Source: a virus. From it: a stretch of DNA of 33,359 bases. The stretch spans positions 1-33,359 of the IMG/VR virus record IMGVR_UViG_3300023235_000077; one strand, 5' to 3'. A program made the position numbers and the translations under genes. The notes under the pieces were generated by a model. The model worked only from the letters and a program-made list of their open reading frames with translations, was not told the origin of the DNA and searched no databases. Of the stretch, positions 14,612 to 29,468 are shown piece by piece (positions within the stretch are counted from its first letter, which is position 1; every line of letters begins with the position of its first letter).

Positions 14612-15790
14612 ATGAACACCGCAACCGCTGAAGTTGTATACCTCAAAACCACAGAAGAATACGTTGGAATTAAAATAGACAGAACAAAAGATCAATCTCT
14701 GTCAGAACAAGCTAAGAAGTTACTTACAGATTATTACCAGACAAAGGATGAAATATCACCACAACAGGCATATGCACGAGCAGCGGTTGCGTATTCATAT
14801 GGTGACATGGAACTTGCCCAGAAGATTTATGATTATGTAAGTGATGGTTGGTTTATGTTTGCTTCCCCGGTCCTATCCAATGCTCCTATGCCGGGTGAGA
14901 AGACACGAGCTCTTCCTATCTCCTGTTTCCTCACATATGTTCCTGATACCCTTGAGGGTTTGATTGACCATTCTGCTGAGTTGCGTTGGTTGTCAGTCAA
15001 GGGTGGTGGTGTTGGTGGACATTGGAGTGATGTTCGTGCAGTGTCAGATAAAGCACCCGGTCCTATGCCATTTATCCATACAGTAGACGCTGACATGACC
15101 GCATATCGTCAGGGGAAGACCCGTAAGGGGTCATATGCTGCATACATGGACATCTCCCACCCTGATATTATTGAGTTCCTAAACATGCGTATACCCACAG
15201 GAGACGTGAATCGTAAGAACCTTAATTTGCATCATGCAGTGAATATTAGCGATGCGTTTATGCGAGCAGTAGAACGTGATGAGATGTGGGATTTGGTTGA
15301 TCCAAATGAACAAGATGCCCGTGACAGTATGAAGGCTAGAAAATTATGGGAAACTGTGTTGGAGACACGTTATCGCACAGGTGAACCATATCTTAACTTC
15401 ATTGATACAGCCAACCGTGCATTACCACAGACCATGAAAGATAAAGGATTAAAAATCAACGGGTCTAACCTGTGTCTTGTGGGTGATACAAAACTTGATT
15501 GTATTATAGACGGCGATCCCTGTTTTGGGGTTACACTTGAATATATTTGCAAACAGAGTTTTGCTGCTGATGTTAAAGTTCTGTCCTATAATGTGGAAAC
15601 TGGTGAAACTTCCTATCAAAGAGTATTATCTGGTTCGTTGATGAATAATGATGCTGATTTGATTCGTATTGAGGATGAAGAAACTGGCAACTTTATTGAA
15701 TGCACCCCCGACCACAGAGTATTCACAAAAAATCGTGGGTATGTAAAGGCTGAGGATTTGAACGAGGATGATGATCTTGTCTTTGGTTAG
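14612..15790 (+). CDS. nrdA: Ribonucleotide reductase alpha subunit, N-terminal half fused to N-intein
   Basis: Residues 1-287 are the N-terminal half of a class I RNR large subunit without an ATP-cone. They contain ASPVLSNAPMP, LPISCFLTYVPDTL (the first redox cysteine) and KGGGVGGHWSDVRA. They end GLKINGSNL, exactly before the catalytic thiyl cysteine (E. coli Cys439). The next 105 residues are an N-intein that starts CLVGDTKL and ends EDDDLVFG-stop. The rest of nrdA lies in a separate gene at 16522, with a homing endonuclease between. NrdA can only become active after protein trans-splicing with that product. GGAGC precedes ATG 14612. Confidence 0.92.
   Translation: MNTATAEVVYLKTTEEYVGIKIDRTKDQSLSEQAKKLLTDYYQTKDEISPQQAYARAAVAYSYGDMELAQKIYDYVSDGWFMFASPVLSNAPMPGEKTRALPISCFLTYVPDTLEGLIDHSAELRWLSVKGGGVGGHWSDVRAVSDKAPGPMPFIHTVDADMTAYRQGKTRKGSYAAYMDISHPDIIEFLNMRIPTGDVNRKNLNLHHAVNISDAFMRAVERDEMWDLVDPNEQDARDSMKARKLWETVLETRYRTGEPYLNFIDTANRALPQTMKDKGLKINGSNLCLVGDTKLDCIIDGDPCFGVTLEYICKQSFAADVKVLSYNVETGETSYQRVLSGSLMNNDADLIRIEDEETGNFIECTPDHRVFTKNRGYVKAEDLNEDDDLVFG
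15473..15787 (+). other. Split intein N-terminal part (NrdA intein)
   Basis: These 105 residues begin with the nucleophile Cys1 (CLVGDTKLD, block A). They contain block B with ECTPDHRVFTKNRGYVKAED, including the catalytic TxxH (TPDH). They end in an acidic run (EDLNEDDDLVFG). The matching C-intein at 16522 begins basic (MALKITKLTQRR). Opposite charge at the break is typical of natural split inteins and helps the halves associate. Confidence 0.9.
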
Positions 15791-15795
15791 ATAAT

Positions 15796-15859
15796 AGTAG
15801 ATGGATTTCTATAGATTTGTTTTATTATAAATATAAGTATAACAAGAAATCCATCTACT
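15796..15859 (+). promoter_or_regulatory. Long inverted repeat enclosing a late promoter
   Basis: Bases 15796-15810 and 15845-15859 are perfect 15-bp complements (core GTAGATGGATTTCT / AGAAATCCATCTAC). Outside them, TAGAT at 15788-15792 can pair with ATCTA at 15861-15865, extending the stem towards the GGGG ribosome site at 15868-15871. The loop contains TATAAATA. A read-through transcript would carry the whole hairpin. A transcript from the late promoter would start inside the loop and lack the 5' arm. This fits stage-specific control of the downstream endonuclease gene. Confidence 0.7.
15826..15833 (+). promoter_or_regulatory. T4-type late promoter inside intein break
   Basis: TATAAATA lies 44 bases before ATG 15878, in the loop of the 15-bp inverted repeat. 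It would express the endonuclease, and possibly the C-terminal nrdA half, late in infection. Confidence 0.7.
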
Positions 15860-15877
15860 CATCTATCGGGGATTAAT

Positions 15878-16519
15878 ATGAAATACACAACATATCTATT
15901 AACATCTAAAACATCCGGCAAACAATATGTGGGATATAGTTCAAAGGGTGTATCAGCGAGATTGCACAAACACCATATTAATGCTAAACGAGGTCAGCAG
16001 ACGCATTTATATAATGCGATACGATTATATGGTATAGATGATTTTTCATCAAAGATATTGTGGGAAGGTCGTTCTAAAAAGAAAGCAACTGATATGGAAA
16101 AGTTCTATATTAAAAATCTTGATACTTATGTGAATGGGTATAATCAAAGTCTTGGTGGTGATGGTGGATATTGTGTTCCCCCAGAGAAACGAGATGAGTT
16201 TTATAAAAATCATAGTAGGATGATGAAAGGAACGAATAATCCCAGATATATTAATGTTGATGACGAAACACTGCTTGAAGGCGCATATTCTTATTTTAAA
16301 GAACATGGTGTATTACCATTATATCACTGGTTTATATATAGTAAAACTCTTGGTTTTCCCACAAGTTATGCGCTGTGTAGATTTGAAGATTTGGGTGGTG
16401 GCAGAGTGGGATTTAAAAATTCTATGAAGAAAAAATATGGGTTGTGTGACGATGACTTTAAATATGTAAAAACTAAAGAACACAAACAAAAACTAGCAGA
16501 AGCAAGTAGGAGAAAATAA
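15878..16519 (+). CDS. GIY-YIG homing endonuclease in the nrdA break
   Basis: This 213-residue protein has an N-terminal GIY-YIG nuclease domain: YTTYLLTSKTSGKQYVGYS (the GIY and YIG strands, in variant form), an Arg helix (ARLHKHHINA), the metal-binding Glu in KATDMEKFYIKNLDTY, and the closing NGYNQSLGGDGGY. The C-terminal part carries short DNA-binding helices and ends in a NUMOD3-like KTKEHKQKLAEASRRK. It is a complete, free-standing gene with its own GGGG ribosome site, ending 2 bases before the C-intein gene. It probably cuts intein-less nrdA genes so the whole break is copied in; that target is inferred from position. Confidence 0.85.
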   Translation: MKYTTYLLTSKTSGKQYVGYSSKGVSARLHKHHINAKRGQQTHLYNAIRLYGIDDFSSKILWEGRSKKKATDMEKFYIKNLDTYVNGYNQSLGGDGGYCVPPEKRDEFYKNHSRMMKGTNNPRYINVDDETLLEGAYSYFKEHGVLPLYHWFIYSKTLGFPTSYALCRFEDLGGGRVGFKNSMKKKYGLCDDDFKYVKTKEHKQKLAEASRRK

Positions 16520-16521
16520 TC

Positions 16522-16623
16522 ATGGCCTTAAAAATAACGAAACTAACTCAGCGCCGGCCCGTATATGATATTACTGTAGAGAACAACCACAACTTTTATG
16601 CTAATGGTATTGTTGTGCATAAC
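16522..16623 (+). other. Split intein C-terminal part (NrdA intein)
   Basis: This is a 34-residue C-intein. Block F is PVYDITVENNHNFYANGIVV and block G is VVHN, followed by Cys+1. Penultimate His and terminal Asn are intact, so the standard Cys1/Asn/Cys+1 chemistry is expected. The 105 + 34 residue split matches known natural split inteins broken at the usual endonuclease insertion site. Confidence 0.9.
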
Positions 16624-17568
16624 TGTAATGAGATTCACCTTCCTACTAATGAAGATCGCACTGCTGTGTGTTGTTTGTCATCTGTCAATCTGGAGAAATT
16701 TGATGAATGGAAGGATACTACAATGATTCGTGATCTTATTCGATTCCTAGATAACGTCCTTCAGTTCTTCATTGACAATGCGGGTGATGAAATCAGTCGT
16801 GCTCGTTTCTCTGCTACACAAGAACGTAGCCTTGGTTTGGGTGCAATGGGATGGCATTCTTATTTGCACAAGCATCGTATCCCCCTTGAGTCTCCATCTG
16901 CTGTGGTTAAAAACATTCAAATCTTTGAACATATTAAATCAGAAGCAGTTGCAGAGACAGAACAACTTTCAAAGGAACGTGGTGAATGTCCAGATATGAA
17001 GGGTACAAGAAGGCGCAATTCTCACCTATTGGCAATTGCACCTAATGCAAACAGTTCAATCATCTGTGGCACGTCGCCATCTATTGAGCCCAGTAAGGCA
17101 AATGCATATACGCACAGAACCCGTGCTGGTTCCCATTTGGTTAAAGATAAATATCTTGAAGAGGAATTGGAGAAGATAAATAAGAATGATGCAACAACTT
17201 GGAGTTCGATTATCACTAATGGTGGTTCTGTTCAACACCTAAGTTTTCTGTCATCAGAGGTAAAGGATATATTCAGGACTGCTATTGAAATTGACCAAAA
17301 CGCAATCGTTTCTCAGGCTGCTGATCGGCAACAGTTTCTATGTCAGGGTCAGTCATTAAATGTGTTCTTTCCAGCAGGCGCATCGAAGGCAGACCTACAT
17401 AAAGTACACTACAATGCTTGGAAGTTGGGTTGTAAGGGATTGTATTATCTTCGTACAGAAACCTCAGCCAAAGCAGAGAATGTGTCAACCAAAATAGTGC
17501 GTGATGCATTGAAAGATTACGAAACACAAACAATGACACAAGAGGAGTGTATAGCATGTTCGGGATAG
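16522..17568 (+). CDS. nrdA: Ribonucleotide reductase alpha subunit, C-terminal half preceded by C-intein
   Basis: Residues 1-34 are the C-intein and residues 35-348 the C-terminal RNR extein. The extein begins at the catalytic cysteine (CNEIHLPTNEDRTAVCC). It has LGAMGWHSYLHKHRIPL, APNANSSIICGTSPSIEPSK, the radical-transfer tyrosines in GLYYLRTETS and the C-terminal redox pair ECIACSG. After splicing with the 14612 product the mature subunit would be about 601 residues, short because the ATP-cone is absent. The gene starts 2 bases after the endonuclease gene; AGTAGGAGA precedes the ATG. The next gene overlaps its end. Confidence 0.92.
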   Translation: MALKITKLTQRRPVYDITVENNHNFYANGIVVHNCNEIHLPTNEDRTAVCCLSSVNLEKFDEWKDTTMIRDLIRFLDNVLQFFIDNAGDEISRARFSATQERSLGLGAMGWHSYLHKHRIPLESPSAVVKNIQIFEHIKSEAVAETEQLSKERGECPDMKGTRRRNSHLLAIAPNANSSIICGTSPSIEPSKANAYTHRTRAGSHLVKDKYLEEELEKINKNDATTWSSIITNGGSVQHLSFLSSEVKDIFRTAIEIDQNAIVSQAADRQQFLCQGQSLNVFFPAGASKADLHKVHYNAWKLGCKGLYYLRTETSAKAENVSTKIVRDALKDYETQTMTQEECIACSG

Positions 17569-17870
17569 CGCTAACAAAATCGGCAGTTGATTATCTAGAT
17601 AGTGTTAGATCAGATGGAGACTATGTGTCCCTTGGAGTTAAGGGTGGTGGATGTTCTGGTTTGGAATATGTTTGGGCAATGGCATCAGAGCTTCCAGATG
17701 TAAATTGGTCAGAACCAATTGAAAATGTATTAGTACTTGACCCAATGGCAGAGATGTATGTCTTGGGGTCAGAAATAGATTATGTAACAGAGTTGGGGGG
17801 TTCGTTCCTCAAAATTAGCAATCCACAACAGAAAAGTAGTTGTGGTTGTGGATCATCGTTTGGAGTATAG
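17556..17870 (+). CDS. A-type iron-sulfur/iron carrier (IscA/HesB-like)
   Basis: This 104-residue protein contains [14 protein letters not shown] and the C-terminal CGCGSSF, the three-cysteine signature of A-type carriers (IscA, ErpA, SufA), which accept and pass on Fe-S clusters or iron. The start ATG 17556 lies inside the end of nrdA, with AGAGGAG 9 bases upstream. An upstream in-frame ATG at 17547 is less well placed. Its position between nrdA and nrdB suggests it supports metal loading, perhaps of the NrdB di-iron centre. That link is inference. Confidence 0.85.
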
Positions 17871-17871
17871 T

Positions 17872-19023
17872 ATGAATATAAGAGTGGTAACAAAGTCCGA
17901 TTGTCCATTTTGCACGATGGCAAAGAGTTGGTTGAAGGAACATGCATTTGAGTATGAAGAGGATTTGATTGATAATGAAGAAGAACGTCTAGCGTTCTAT
18001 CAGACAATCAATGGCGCTACCGAAGTGGTGGGTGCGATGAATACTCGTAGGGTTAATTCTGTTCCCCAAATCTTTATTGATGACAAGCGTATCGGGGGTT
18101 ATGATGATCTAATGAAGATGGGTGATGACCTACTGAAGAAACGCAGCGGGGGTGGACTATTACAGTTCAGTGAAACCTATAAACCGTTTCACTATCCTTG
18201 GGCAGTAGAGATTACCACACGCCATGAAAAGGCACATTGGATTGAGGACGAACTTGATTTGTCTGAGGATGTGGCTGATTGGAAGTCTGGTAAGGTCACT
18301 GAGACTGAGAAGGAATATGTTACCAACATCCTACGCCTGTTCACACAGTCTGATGTTGCAGTGGGTCAGAACTATTATGACCAGTTTATTCCCAAGTTCA
18401 AGAATAATGAAATCCGTAACATGCTTGGTTCTTTTGCAGCCCGTGAAGGTATACACCAACGTGCATATGCTCTACTCAATGAGACACTTGGGTTGCCAGA
18501 CAGTGAGTACCATGCATTCCTAGAGTACAAGGAAATGGTAAATAAGATTGAGTTCATGCAGGAGTCAGACAATACCACAATGAAGGGTCTAGGTCTTGCA
18601 CTTGCAAAGTCTGTGTTCAATGAAGGTGTTGCACTGTTTGCGTCATTCGTTATGCTCCTCAACTTCCAGCGGTTCGGTAAGATGAAGGGTATGGGTAAGG
18701 TTGTTGAGTGGTCTATTCGTGACGAAGCATTATTGGTTGGCACGAAAGTAACAACTAAGGCCGGCGATAAAAATATTGAAAATATAACATTAGAAGATGA
18801 AGTGTTACAATTTGATATGAACACAAAAGATTTTTCATATACAAACCCAACAAAAACACAAAAAGTTATTCGTGATGAAATATATCATTTTGAGGGCGCC
18901 GGGTTTGACCAAAAAGTTTCACCAAATCATAGAATGATATATGAACAGGGTGGTGAAATAAAGGAATGTTTAGCAAAGGATTTTGAACCATCAGAAGACA
19001 AATATTTTATAATTGTTGAATAA
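17872..19023 (+). CDS. nrdB: Glutaredoxin-NrdB fusion, N-terminal half with N-intein
   Basis: Residues 1-90 are a glutaredoxin: [17 protein letters not shown] (CPFC active site), [19 protein letters not shown]. Residues 95-285 are the first part of the RNR small subunit. [12 protein letters not shown] carries Glu, His and the radical Tyr, and [16 protein letters not shown] carries another iron-ligand Glu. The extein stops at VVEWSIRDE, in the middle of the iron-binding E-x-x-H motif. The last 98 residues are an N-intein. GGAG lies 6 bases before ATG 17872. The product must be trans-spliced to the protein encoded at 19848 to build the di-iron site. The glutaredoxin could supply electrons to the same enzyme. 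Confidence 0.88.
18727..19020 (+). other. Split intein N-terminal part (NrdB intein, Ala1 type)
   Basis: These 98 residues begin ALLVGTKV and include a block B-like segment [20 protein letters not shown], with SPNH as the TxxH equivalent. Extein logic fixes the boundary. Splicing RDE to SMH gives the required E-x-x-H iron motif, while keeping the Ala in the extein would give E-x-x-x-H. The first intein residue is therefore Ala, not Cys or Ser. Confidence 0.8.
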
Positions 19024-19049
19024 CTCTTTCGTCTTGAATACTCCATTAT

Positions 19050-19057
19050 TATAAATA
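19050..19057 (+). promoter_or_regulatory. T4-type late promoter inside intein break
   Basis: TATAAATA lies 29-36 bases before the endonuclease starts at 19081/19087. It overlaps an 8-bp A/T hairpin (19047-19054 with 19061-19068). This repeats the arrangement in the nrdA break. Confidence 0.65.
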
Positions 19058-19086
19058 GTATTATAATATTAACTGGGGGTATGTTG

Positions 19087-19857
19087 ATGGGGTATATATA
19101 CAAAACATTAAATGTAACTAATAATAGGGTTTATATTGGTAAAAGTCATAAAAAAATATTTGATGAAAATTACTTTGGTTCTGGAATGTTGCTGCGTCAA
19201 TCAATAAAAAAACACGGCAGTACTGATCATTTAATTGTTTCTATTATTGAATATTGTGATAATAGTGATATAGATGATAGAGAAATATATTGGATTGACA
19301 AATATAAATCTAAATTTGGTGATTTGATATACAATTTATCAGAAGGTGGTTCGGGCGGAAACACAAATAAATATAAATCACCAGAAGAAAGGAATAAAAT
19401 ATATAAACGCATATCAAAGAAAACTATTGGGAGAAAAGATTCGCCAGAAGTAAAATTGAAAAAATCAATATCAGCTAAAAAAAGAATAATAGATTTTCCT
19501 AACACATTACCGGACAATAAAGGAAGAATTCATGAGAGGAGTGGTTTAGAAAATATACGAAATGGGATAAAAAAAAGAATTGGTGAGATGACTATAACTG
19601 ATGGTGTAAATGAAAAAAAGATTATGAATGAAATTGATATTCCTGATGGTTGGCAAAGAGGGAGAAGCAATGCGTTTAAAAATAAATCGAGGGGGAGAAC
19701 AATGAGTGTTGAATCTTCATCTAAAAAATCAAAACATTTTACTGGAAAAATTAGAATCACAAATAAAGTGGAAAATAAATGGATTTGTGGGGGACAAGAA
19801 ATTCCAGCTGGATATATAAGAGGAATAACAAAAAGGGGTGACATGATATGCAAATAA
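19087..19857 (+). CDS. GIY-YIG homing endonuclease in the nrdB break
   Basis: This 256-residue GIY-YIG protein has GYIYKTLNVTNNRVYIGKSH (GIY and YIG strands), an FGSG.LL helix (YFGSGMLLRQSIKKHG), the catalytic Glu in DDREIYWIDKYKS and NLSEGGSGGN. A long basic C-terminal region follows, with NUMOD3-like segments and two similar sub-domains (TDGVNEKKI...IPDGWQRGR and ITNKVENKWI...IPAGYIRG). I prefer ATG 19087 because GGGGG at 19075-19079 is then at normal spacing; ATG 19081 is also possible. It overlaps the C-intein gene by 10 bases. It is not a close copy of the nrdA-break nuclease, which implies a separate invasion. Confidence 0.82.
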   Translation: MGYIYKTLNVTNNRVYIGKSHKKIFDENYFGSGMLLRQSIKKHGSTDHLIVSIIEYCDNSDIDDREIYWIDKYKSKFGDLIYNLSEGGSGGNTNKYKSPEERNKIYKRISKKTIGRKDSPEVKLKKSISAKKRIIDFPNTLPDNKGRIHERSGLENIRNGIKKRIGEMTITDGVNEKKIMNEIDIPDGWQRGRSNAFKNKSRGRTMSVESSSKKSKHFTGKIRITNKVENKWICGGQEIPAGYIRGITKRGDMICK

Positions 19858-19991
19858 AAAGAATTAAATCAACCGATGTAAAAATAACACATACAAAACT
19901 TGACGAACCAACAGAATTTCATTGCTTATCTGTTCCGGGTAAATCATTTGTTGTTACGGATGAACATGGCAATAGGTCGGTTACTGGAAAT
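19848..19991 (+). other. Split intein C-terminal part (NrdB intein)
   Basis: This 48-residue C-intein begins basic (MQIKRIKSTDVKITHTK). Block F is EFHCLSVPGKSFVVTD and it ends RSVTGN before Ser+1. The penultimate residue is Gly instead of the usual His, as in many phage inteins ending TGN-S. With Ala1 and Ser+1, the splicing chemistry must skip the first acyl shift. Confidence 0.82.
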
Positions 19992-20384
19992 AGTATGCAT
20001 GTTGAGGGGAACGCTAAACTGTTCCGTCAATTTTGTGTTGAGCATCCCAAGGTAGTTGATGATGATTTCAAGGGAGACATTTATGTTATGGCTCGTGTTG
20101 CAGTCAAGTTAGAAGACAAATTCATTGACCTTGCCTATAAGATGGGTGAGATTGAAGGTCTAGATGCGTCTGAAGTAAAGTCATATATAAGGTATATAAC
20201 AGACAGACGTTTATTGCAGTTGGGTTTAAAAACCAATTTTAAGGTAAAGGAAAATCCTCTGCCTTGGTTAGAGTGGGTACTGAATGGTGCAGACCACACT
20301 AACTTCTTTGAGGGAAGAGTTACAGAATATGAGGTGGCAGGATTATCAGGCAACTGGGAAGACGCATATGAGGCAATTGCGTGA
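19848..20384 (+). CDS. nrdB: Ribonucleotide reductase beta subunit, C-terminal half preceded by C-intein
   Basis: Residues 1-48 are the C-intein and residues 49-178 the NrdB C-extein. The extein begins SMHVEGNAKLFRQF, so splicing restores RDE-SMH and the last iron ligands. It continues with MARVAVKLEDKFIDLAYKMG and YIRYITDRRLLQLGL and ends GLSGNWEDAYEAIA. The spliced product would be about 415 residues including the glutaredoxin domain. The gene overlaps the endonuclease gene by 10 bases and the next small gene by 4 (GTGA), so it depends on coupled translation. Confidence 0.9.
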   Translation: MQIKRIKSTDVKITHTKLDEPTEFHCLSVPGKSFVVTDEHGNRSVTGNSMHVEGNAKLFRQFCVEHPKVVDDDFKGDIYVMARVAVKLEDKFIDLAYKMGEIEGLDASEVKSYIRYITDRRLLQLGLKTNFKVKENPLPWLEWVLNGADHTNFFEGRVTEYEVAGLSGNWEDAYEAIA

Positions 20385-20970: not shown

Positions 20971-21122
20971 ACATGTGGAAATATTGGTGTAAGGCAATCG
21001 GGTATAAAGCATTTGATGAGGATGACAAAGCAGACAGGGTTGCGATAATCAGGACTGTTTGGGTTGTCTTACATACAGCAACATGCTTTGCAATTATTGC
21101 AAACGCTTGGAGACAGTGGTGA
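20967..21122 (+). CDS. Small single-pass membrane protein
   Basis: This 51-residue protein starts in an ATGA overlap with the preceding stop. It reads MNMWKYWCKAIGYKAF, an acidic stretch (DEDDKADR), then a membrane helix (TVWVVLHTATCFAIIANAW). It ends at TGA 21120-21122, overlapping a GTG start at 21119. I associate this short WKYWCKAIG...ADR+helix form with marine T4-like phages. Function is unknown. Confidence 0.68.
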   Translation: MNMWKYWCKAIGYKAFDEDDKADRVAIIRTVWVVLHTATCFAIIANAWRQW

Positions 21123-21535
21123 CTTGGCACTACAACGGAAAACCATTCACAAGTGAAATGATTGAAGACAATCTTGGTTTTGTTTATATAGTAACTGACA
21201 AAAGAAATGGTAAAGACTATATTGGCAAAAAAGGTTTAGTGTCTAAAAGAAAATTACCCCCACTGAAGGGTAAGAAAAGAAAACGCATCAAGATAGTGGA
21301 GACTGATTGGAAAACTTACTGTGGTTCAAATGAAGAAGTAAAGTTGTTAGTAGAAGAACACGGATTAGAATTGTTTGATAGAAAAATTGTTCGGCTATGT
21401 AAATCAAAGGGCGAAATAAATTACTATGAAGCTAAACTTCAATTTGACACAGATTGTCTATTAAAACCAGATGAATTTTATAATGCATTTATAGGATGTA
21501 AAATAAGTCGCTCCCACCTAATAACTAAACCCTAA
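21119..21535 (+). CDS. SegE-like GIY-YIG domain protein
   Basis: From GTG 21119 this is a 138-residue protein. GFVYIVTDKRNGKDYIGKKG carries the GIY-YIG strands, followed by basic KKRKRIKIVETDWKTYCGSN, LVEEHG and a Glu in INYYEAKLQFDTDC. It resembles the T4 SegE group, single-domain free-standing nucleases common in T4-like phages. An upstream ATG at 21059 lies within the preceding gene in another frame and lacks support. Unlike the three other GIY-YIG proteins here it has no NUMOD tail and sits in an ordinary operon, so it may be a resident phage nuclease rather than a mobile one. Confidence 0.75.
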   Translation: MTWHYNGKPFTSEMIEDNLGFVYIVTDKRNGKDYIGKKGLVSKRKLPPLKGKKRKRIKIVETDWKTYCGSNEEVKLLVEEHGLELFDRKIVRLCKSKGEINYYEAKLQFDTDCLLKPDEFYNAFIGCKISRSHLITKP

Positions 21536-29042: not shown

Positions 29043-29468
29043 GTGTATTATTCGACTACGAATACACGCAAGCGCAAACAGAAAAAGAAGTCGGCCTCTG
29101 TCCTAGAGGCAGAGCGTCAACACGACAAGTTTCTCAAGAAGATGGGTATAGGCACTCGTAGCTCAGTTGGATTAGAGCAACGGCCTTCTAAGCCGTGGGT
29201 CGCAGGTTCGAGTCCTGTCGAGTGCGCCAAATCACAGACCTGTAGTTCAGTCTGGTTAGAACGGAGCGCTCATAACGCTTATGTCGCAGGTTCGAATCCT
29301 GCCGGGTCTACCAATAATGTTCTGTATGATTCTTCTATGGCAAAGAAACCAGAGAAGATTTATACTGGTATTGAGATTATAGGTATTGCACAGATGCATA
29401 AATCCAATGCAGTGCCAGTTCGGGGTAAGAAACAGGCAGAAGAGATTGCAAAGATGAGGCGAGGATGA
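29043..29468 (+). CDS. Open frame running through both tRNA genes; small basic protein at its 5' end
   Basis: The frame is open from ATG 29019 to 29468. I mark it from GTG 29043 because VYYSTTNTRKRKQKKKSASV and LEAERQHDKFLKKMG resemble a short basic protein of T4-like phages. No stop occurs before the tRNA genes, so the frame reads through both, giving tRNA-derived peptide (RSSVGLEQRPSKPWVAGSSP). Only the first 36 or so residues and the last 43, which have their own start at 29337, look like real protein. tRNA processing would cut the mRNA at about 29151 and leave a message without a stop codon. Confidence 0.35.
   Translation: MYYSTTNTRKRKQKKKSASVLEAERQHDKFLKKMGIGTRSSVGLEQRPSKPWVAGSSPVECAKSQTCSSVWLERSAHNAYVAGSNPAGSTNNVLYDSSMAKKPEKIYTGIEIIGIAQMHKSNAVPVRGKKQAEEIAKMRRG
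29152..29229 (+). tRNA. tRNA-Arg (TCT)
   Basis: This is a complete cloverleaf. The acceptor stem is GCACTCG/CGAGTGC, the D-stem GCTC/GAGC, and the anticodon stem ACGGC/GCCGT with loop CTTCTAA (anticodon TCT at 29187-29189). The T-stem is GCAGG/CCTGT with TTCGAGT. Discriminator G is followed by an encoded CCA. It reads AGA (and AGG by wobble), codons seen often in the genes of this window. Confidence 0.95.
29236..29313 (+). tRNA. tRNA with CAT anticodon (Met elongator or Ile2)
   Basis: This is a complete cloverleaf. The acceptor stem is AGACCTG/CGGGTCT (one T-G pair), the D-stem GTTC/GAAC, and the anticodon stem GAGCG/CGCTT with loop CTCATAA (CAT at 29271-29273). The T-stem is GCAGG/CCTGC. 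Discriminator A is followed by an encoded CCA. The paired A1-T72 and lack of three G-C pairs next to the anticodon argue against an initiator tRNA. Met elongator and lysidine-modified Ile2 cannot be separated by eye. Confidence 0.92.
29337..29468 (+). CDS. Small conserved-type phage protein
   Basis: This 43-residue protein starts at ATG 29337: MAKKPEKIYTGIEIIGIAQM, HKSNAVPVRGKKQAEEIAKM. It lies 23 bases after the second tRNA and ends in an ATGA overlap with the next gene. It shares frame with the long open frame through the tRNAs, but its own start makes a separate small protein likely. I have a vague memory of similar short proteins in T4-like phages. Function is unknown. Confidence 0.55.
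   Translation: MAKKPEKIYTGIEIIGIAQMHKSNAVPVRGKKQAEEIAKMRRG

What the first reader, a model, noticed from the sequence alone, without database searches (positions are those of the whole stretch)
14612..20384. Both RNR subunits are fractured genes with split inteins and an endonuclease in each break
nrdA (14612-15790 and 16522-17568) and nrdB (17872-19023 and 19848-20384) are each cut into two cistrons. The 5' cistron ends with an N-intein and stop codon. The 3' cistron begins with its own start and a C-intein. A complete GIY-YIG endonuclease gene lies between. The two halves carry complementary charge at the break (acidic N-intein end, basic C-intein start). Active RNR would need two separate trans-splicing reactions. 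Split inteins with a gene between the halves ('fractured genes') are known from ocean metagenomes for NrdA and others. Both subunits of one enzyme split this way, with GIY-YIG nucleases, is not something I know to be described.
Basis: partly seen in the sequence, partly recalled or inferred. Interest (0 to 1): 0.92.

Follow-up and report, generated by a model that had tools for sequence, protein, structure and literature searches.

The report
Phage ribonucleotide reductase with both subunits split
A phage has both parts of its DNA-building-block enzyme cut in two by self-joining protein pieces, each cut holding a DNA-cutting gene; one of the cuts was already published and shown to rejoin, while the pairing and a likely late-expression switch on the cutter genes appear undescribed.

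Summary
nrdA and nrdB (a glutaredoxin-NrdB fusion) are each divided by a split intein with a GIY-YIG gene in the break. Four IMG/VR contigs repeat it, and close relatives have both genes uninterrupted exactly at the predicted splice points. The NrdA intein looks class 1, and related split NrdA genes with GIY-YIG genes occur in other contigs. In the papers I could search I found no report of both subunits split by inteins in one operon (both interrupted by introns and cis inteins is known), nor of T4-type late promoter motifs (TATAAATA) before the endonuclease of a fractured gene. In the NrdA break the motif lies in a strong predicted hairpin that covers the ribosome site, as known for I-TevI; the same layout recurs in other split RNR genes with GIY-YIG or HNH nucleases. 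The hairpin is not supported in the NrdB break. A new variant of a known kind.

The parts
14612..15472 (+). nrdA N-extein, ends ...KINGSNL
15473..15790 (+). NrdA N-intein (105 aa, Cys1, TPDH block B), stop TAG
15791..15877 (+). leader of GIY-YIG A; 15-bp perfect inverted repeat 15796-15810/15845-15859; GGGG ribosome site predicted to pair with the end of the N-intein cistron
15826..15833 (+). TATAAATA, T4-type late promoter motif, between the arms of the inverted repeat
15878..16519 (+). GIY-YIG endonuclease gene A (213 aa)
   Evidence: 61-bp deletion allele in contig 3300022843_001301
16522..16623 (+). NrdA C-intein (34 aa, ends VVHN)
16624..17568 (+). nrdA C-extein, +1 Cys is the conserved Cys of SNLC
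17872..18726 (+). nrdB N-extein with glutaredoxin domain, ends ...SIRDE
18727..19023 (+). NrdB N-intein (98 aa, Ala1) = AceL NrdHF IntN
19024..19080 (+). leader of GIY-YIG B; hairpin not supported
19050..19057 (+). TATAAATA late promoter motif before GIY-YIG B
19081..19857 (+). GIY-YIG endonuclease gene B (258 aa)
19848..19991 (+). NrdB C-intein (48 aa, block F Cys, ends VTGN) = AceL NrdHF IntC
19992..20384 (+). nrdB C-extein, +1 Ser (SMHVEG)

Best explanation
Two separate mobile units invaded the RNR operon of a T4-like phage at its two catalytic centres. Each is a split intein with its own GIY-YIG homing endonuclease gene between the halves. The four polypeptides pair by their intein fragments and trans-splice into whole NrdA (class 1 chemistry, Cys1 and Cys+1) and whole Grx-NrdB (class 3 chemistry, internal Cys and Ser+1). 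Because one break falls just before the catalytic cysteine and the other between two metal-site residues, unspliced halves should be inactive and only exact loss of the insert would be tolerated (inference). The endonuclease is a cistron of its own with its own late promoter motif; in the NrdA break, RNA reading through from upstream folds so that its ribosome site is covered, while RNA starting at the late motif lacks the 5' arm. Shown: gene layout, splice points, NrdB intein chemistry (published, in vitro), promoter motifs, predicted fold. Inferred: NrdA splicing, homing, late timing in infection.
For: Intein-free alleles contiguous at the splice points. NrdB intein equal to 6ZGQ over 145 residues except its Cys-to-Ala position and a 3-residue linker in the construct; trans-splicing with native SIRDE/SMHVE flanks, half-time about 3.8 min at 37 C (PMC7891396). 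NrdA intein related to the solved split intein NrdJ-1, E 6e-18, with Cys1, TPDH, VHN|C. Inserts are AT-rich: NrdB insert 28-33% GC, NrdA insert 24-38%, exteins 41-44%. Four split forms without an endonuclease in the break and one damaged endonuclease allele fit a homing cycle. TATAAATA in 7 of 13 representative leaders, 0.4 expected from shuffles; leaving out the two window leaders in which I first saw it, 5 of 11 with about 0.3 expected. NrdA leader z -5.5; ribosome site unpaired 0.12 in read-through RNA and 0.51 in late RNA. Controls: 49 other window starts, z mean -0.6, lowest -4.2, unpaired median 0.54, 5% quantile 0.14; a gain of 0.38 or more on shortening at -40 in 2 of 49. Melnitz, the best match in the phage collection, is annotated with a late sigma factor, late coactivator and clamp and has TATAAATA before virion genes.
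Against: No splicing of NrdA has been measured. The NrdB leader has the motif but no convincing hairpin: z -0.3, ribosome site 0.58 to 0.62; z -1.4 on another cut. Six of 13 representatives lack the + strand motif, among them the seven-locus G1 group, which also lacks a hairpin. Covering of the ribosome site in the other groups is moderate (0.29, 0.23, 0.39, 0.33; L200 0.00), and shortening an RNA often frees it anyway: gains of 0.32 or more in 7 of 49 control starts cut at -20 and 5 of 49 at -26. The compensatory change in the G2 stem is one pair and not above shuffles. Homing activity is untested.
Confidence: 0.78

Rival explanations
1. Genes in pieces without splicing, as for Aeh1 NrdA: the halves assemble without being joined.
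For: Phage precedent: Aeh1 nrdA split by mobE is still functional (stated in PMC3653736 section 9; the original paper is not held).
Against: Intein halves with catalytic residues sit at both breaks; the NrdB intein splices in vitro (PMC7891396); unspliced N-halves would carry about 100 extra residues at the active site.
Confidence: 0.07
2. Assembly artefact or decaying pseudogenes.
For: The four supporting contigs are near identical and could be one population.
Against: Four separate contigs with intact RNR and intein frames; homologous units with the same layout in other contigs. The only damage seen is in the endonuclease of one contig.
Confidence: 0.02
3. The leader hairpins do something else, such as RNA processing or termination, or TATAAATA there is chance in AT-rich DNA.
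For: Leaders are 24-28% GC; NrdB leader hairpin weak; freeing of the ribosome site on shortening is not rare in controls.
Against: Motif in 7 of 13 representatives, 0.4 expected; hairpins of different sequence around it in five groups. The terminator scan marks none there, but it only looks at loops of 3-8, and I saw no T run after the NrdA stem.
Confidence: 0.25

Closest known systems
AceL NrdHF split intein (Hoffmann 2020, PMC7891396; PDB 6ZGQ)
   Same: The NrdB intein, its split, its extein flanks and a GIY-YIG in a fractured gene
   Different: NrdA and NrdE do not occur in its main text; I saw no late promoter in the parts read
Fractured genes of ocean metagenomes (Dassa 2009; not held, seen as cited: 7 nrdA and 2 nrdJ)
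   Same: Split intein in nrdA; free-standing endonuclease between halves (recalled)
   Different: Both RNR subunits split here, GIY-YIG nucleases, late motif and hairpin; cannot be checked against the paper itself
Brochothrix phage A9 and Bacillus phage SPbeta RNR genes (PMC3653736)
   Same: Both subunit genes of one RNR interrupted by mobile elements
   Different: There by introns and an intein in nrdE and an intron in nrdF, not two split inteins
NrdJ-1 split intein (8UBS)
   Same: Closest solved relative of the NrdA intein, E 6e-18
   Different: Host RNR class differs (recalled from its name)
I-TevI, I-TevII, I-TevIII, segB and Aeh1 mobE control (PMC2988022, PMC3014915; passages)
   Same: Late promoter placed so that only read-through RNA forms a hairpin hiding the ribosome site
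   Different: Those lie in introns, between genes or in a gene broken without an intein
Aeh1 NrdA genes in pieces
   Same: Phage nrdA cut in two by an endonuclease gene
   Different: Inteins present here

Membership tests
Fractured gene with split intein | Host gene in two cistrons, N-intein ending the first, C-intein starting the second | tested here: met
Fractured gene with split intein | Free-standing endonuclease gene between the halves | tested here: met
   GIY-YIG in both breaks
Class 3 (split) intein, NrdB | No nucleophile at position 1, Cys in block F, Thr at G:5 | tested here: met
   Ala1, FHC, VTGN; residue roles from PMC7891396
Class 3 (split) intein, NrdB | Trp at B:12 (WCT triplet) | tested here: not met
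   Met instead; the published MCT form was nevertheless shown to follow the class 3 path
Class 1 intein, NrdA | Cys1, block B TxxH, penultimate His, final Asn, +1 Cys | tested here: met
   CLVGDTKL, TPDH, VVHN|C; motif rules recalled
Class 1 intein, NrdA | Splicing activity | not testable with these tools
   needs co-expression
I-TevI/mobE-type late control | Late promoter motif upstream of the endonuclease | tested here: met
   TATAAATA in both leaders; use as a promoter not tested
I-TevI/mobE-type late control | Hairpin hiding the ribosome site only in read-through RNA, NrdA break | tested here: met
   by predicted fold only
I-TevI/mobE-type late control | Same hairpin, NrdB break | tested here: inconclusive
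   z -0.3 and -1.4
Homing endonuclease | Cuts the intein-free allele near the insertion site | not testable with these tools
   needs a cleavage assay
Genes in pieces without splicing (Aeh1) | No intron or intein at the break | tested here: not met

The most novel reading that the evidence does not exclude
Genes are fractured because splitting the intein frees the endonuclease from the early host reading frame and lets it be made late, under its own promoter and hairpin: a protein-level counterpart of the I-TevI intron design, reached several times with GIY-YIG and HNH nucleases. This RNR operon has been captured twice, so one enzyme needs four polypeptides, two splicing chemistries and two timed endonucleases.
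Probability: 0.35. Interest if true: 0.72.

Novelty: new variant of a known kind. Interest (0 to 1): 0.5.

Why it matters
It offers a testable reason why split inteins with free endonuclease genes exist: timing. It places an uncharacterised class 1 type NrdA split intein next to a published class 3 one in one operon, so two natural trans-splicing systems act on two subunits of one enzyme. It also shows insertion at both catalytic centres of a single enzyme.

Tried and rejected
Rfam at gathering thresholds gave only two tRNAs in the window, so no known intron family in the breaks. A masking hairpin in the NrdB leader was tested and not supported. Covariation in the G2 stem is not above shuffles. 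Identity to seven loci from five intein-free contigs showed no clear co-conversion tract at either site. The +1 Ser codon AGT differs from most intein-free relatives (69 TCN, 14 ACN, 2 AGY, 10 other of 95 distinct contexts): suggestive only. E. coli numbering is recalled: chain offsets put the NrdA Cys at 440-444 against recalled 439, so they do not settle it, and the NrdB Glu and His at 238-243 and 241-246 against recalled 238 and 241; no residue-level alignment to E. coli was shown. No structure prediction was run. Whether the published 12.2-kb contig includes nrdA is unknown to me.
Full report
What is there. The best match in the phage collection, Methylophilales phage Melnitz, has primase, nrdA, a small ORF and nrdB in the same order, each RNR gene as one CDS.

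Splice points and reality. IMG/VR scans with the two 3' cistrons found 568 and 186 relatives and kept the best 80 loci each. Searching the joined exteins against those 153 loci gave an uninterrupted NrdA junction in 133 of 147 loci with a match and an uninterrupted NrdB junction in 141 of 151. Of the 14 NrdA exceptions nine carry the insert and five are truncated; of the 10 NrdB exceptions eight carry it and two are truncated. The insert-bearing NrdB loci come from four contigs. Three match the window at all sampled 60-mers and in protein; the fourth, 3300022843_001301, has lost 61 bases of GIY-YIG A while both inteins stay intact.

The NrdB intein is known. It begins with Ala and ends with Asn before Ser. 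A joined query matched PDB 6ZGQ, AceL NrdHF-1-1, over 145 residues, differing only where the construct has Ala for the block F Cys and a short linker. Of Hoffmann 2020 I read the outline, two of six parts, and passages found by term: first split class 3 intein, MCT triplet, Ace Lake, fractured gene with a GIY-YIG, 12.2-kb contig of 17 genes, trans-splicing with five native flanking residues. NrdA and NrdE do not occur in its main text.

The NrdA intein. It carries Cys1, TPDH, VVHN and +1 Cys, passes TIGR01443 (6.6e-12) and is nearest to NrdJ-1 among solved chains. A scan with its N-half and the L146 homologue gave 48 loci. In one search seven of the 48 read as cis inteins, three show no C-half, and in 38, including the four window-like contigs, a C-half match follows a stop (for L221 and L228-230 the match is weak). 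L187 holds a cis mini-intein at the same NrdA site. GIY-YIG relatives at 45-52% lie in the NrdA break of L188-190, L192, L194-196 and L232, with L231 alike; more distant matches in L197, L201, L198-199, L207-208, L225 and L211. The 5' cistrons of L197, L198, L200, L203, L209, L210, L211 and L212 are RNR large subunits by Pfam (8 of 8 tested). L200 carries an HNH nuclease; L209's nuclease has no Pfam match. L193, L202, L205 and L227 are split with no endonuclease in the break; in the first three the gap ends with what looks like the endonuclease's 3' end, carrying the ribosome site of the C-half (by eye).

Only the window-like contigs show both subunits split. In the 11 loci whose NrdB aligns up to the site on both sides it is uninterrupted in all 11; eight more align only partly, with no insert above about 9 nt. 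This concerns fetched loci, not all phages.

Where the breaks fall. The NrdA break is directly before the Cys of SNLC, the NrdB break between the Glu and His of RDE-x-x-H. That these are the thiyl radical cysteine and two metal ligands is recalled family knowledge; one search gives only approximate E. coli positions.

Late promoter and hairpin. TATAAATA occurs seven times in the window, all on the + strand, 2.3 expected over both strands, 1 of 100 shuffles reaching seven. In Melnitz it occurs 22 times on + and three times on -, 7.0 expected per strand. Mapped by eye to the gene table, 16 of the 22 begin 24-69 nt before a gene, among them tail sheath, prohead core, major capsid, baseplate and tail fibre genes; the other six do not. 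The three - sites lie 6, 44 and 6 nt before - strand genes, two of them too close for a usual leader. Both window endonuclease leaders hold the motif. The NrdA leader folds at -31 to -32.5 kcal/mol, z about -5.5, with the ribosome site paired to the last codons of the N-intein cistron. I examined 27 leaders. Strong hairpins, z about -4.9 or lower: NrdA leader, L231, L232, L197, L201, L198, L199, L207, L208, L225, L200, L209. With longer flanks L232, L201 and L209 give -4.4 to -4.7, L199 and L200 -6.9 and -7.7. None or weak: NrdB leader, L211, seven G1 loci, L203, L204, L210, L212, L215, L216. Of 13 representatives seven have the motif, 0.4 expected. In the seven leaders with both motif and strong hairpin the predicted accessibility rises in the late RNA by 0.32 to 0.43; the NrdB leader and L211 hardly change. 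In 49 control starts shortening alone gives 0.32 or more in 7 (cut at -20), 5 (-26) and 3 (-40), so the rise is unusual but not unique.

Literature. Two reviews, read as passages, describe this control for I-TevI, I-TevII, I-TevIII, segB and Aeh1 mobE. The held papers that contain both split intein and late promoter are five; the four listed are on gene therapy and synthetic biology by title; one search showed 15 of 39 rows, none with both terms. Section 9 of PMC3653736, read whole, reports both subunit genes interrupted in Brochothrix A9 and SPbeta by introns and an intein. Most subscription papers and Dassa 2009 are not held.

Assessment. A double fracture with a probably late-timed endonuclease is a new variant of fractured genes; the NrdB component alone is already known.

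Noticed in passing
21059-21535: Third GIY-YIG gene, SegE family (PF19835, 9.6e-37), free-standing after the RNR operon, without a TATAAATA close before it.
   Followed up: partly
L310 (from contig 3300035145_003993): Second fractured gene in the same 211-kb contig: a PHP-domain cistron (PolIII alpha-like by eye) ending in an N-intein, followed by a 316-aa ORF with a sub-threshold Vsr match, E 0.008.
   Followed up: partly
17547-17870: IscA/ErpA-like iron-sulphur gene between nrdA and nrdB.
   Followed up: no
29152-29313: Adjacent tRNA-Arg(TCT) and tRNA-Met(CAT) genes.
   Followed up: no
L187 1616-2068: Cis mini-intein at the same NrdA site, 56% and 70% identical to the two split halves: a candidate ancestor or fusion.
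   Followed up: partly
L198, L199, L225 4319-4378: Perfect stems of 16 bp or more before the endonuclease without a + strand TATAAATA.
   Followed up: partly
L211 3167-4312; L212 4001-8117: Signs of a second intein in the same RNR gene: an extra HINT stretch at residues 58-142 of the L211 cistron and a second N-half and C-half pair in L212.
   Followed up: no
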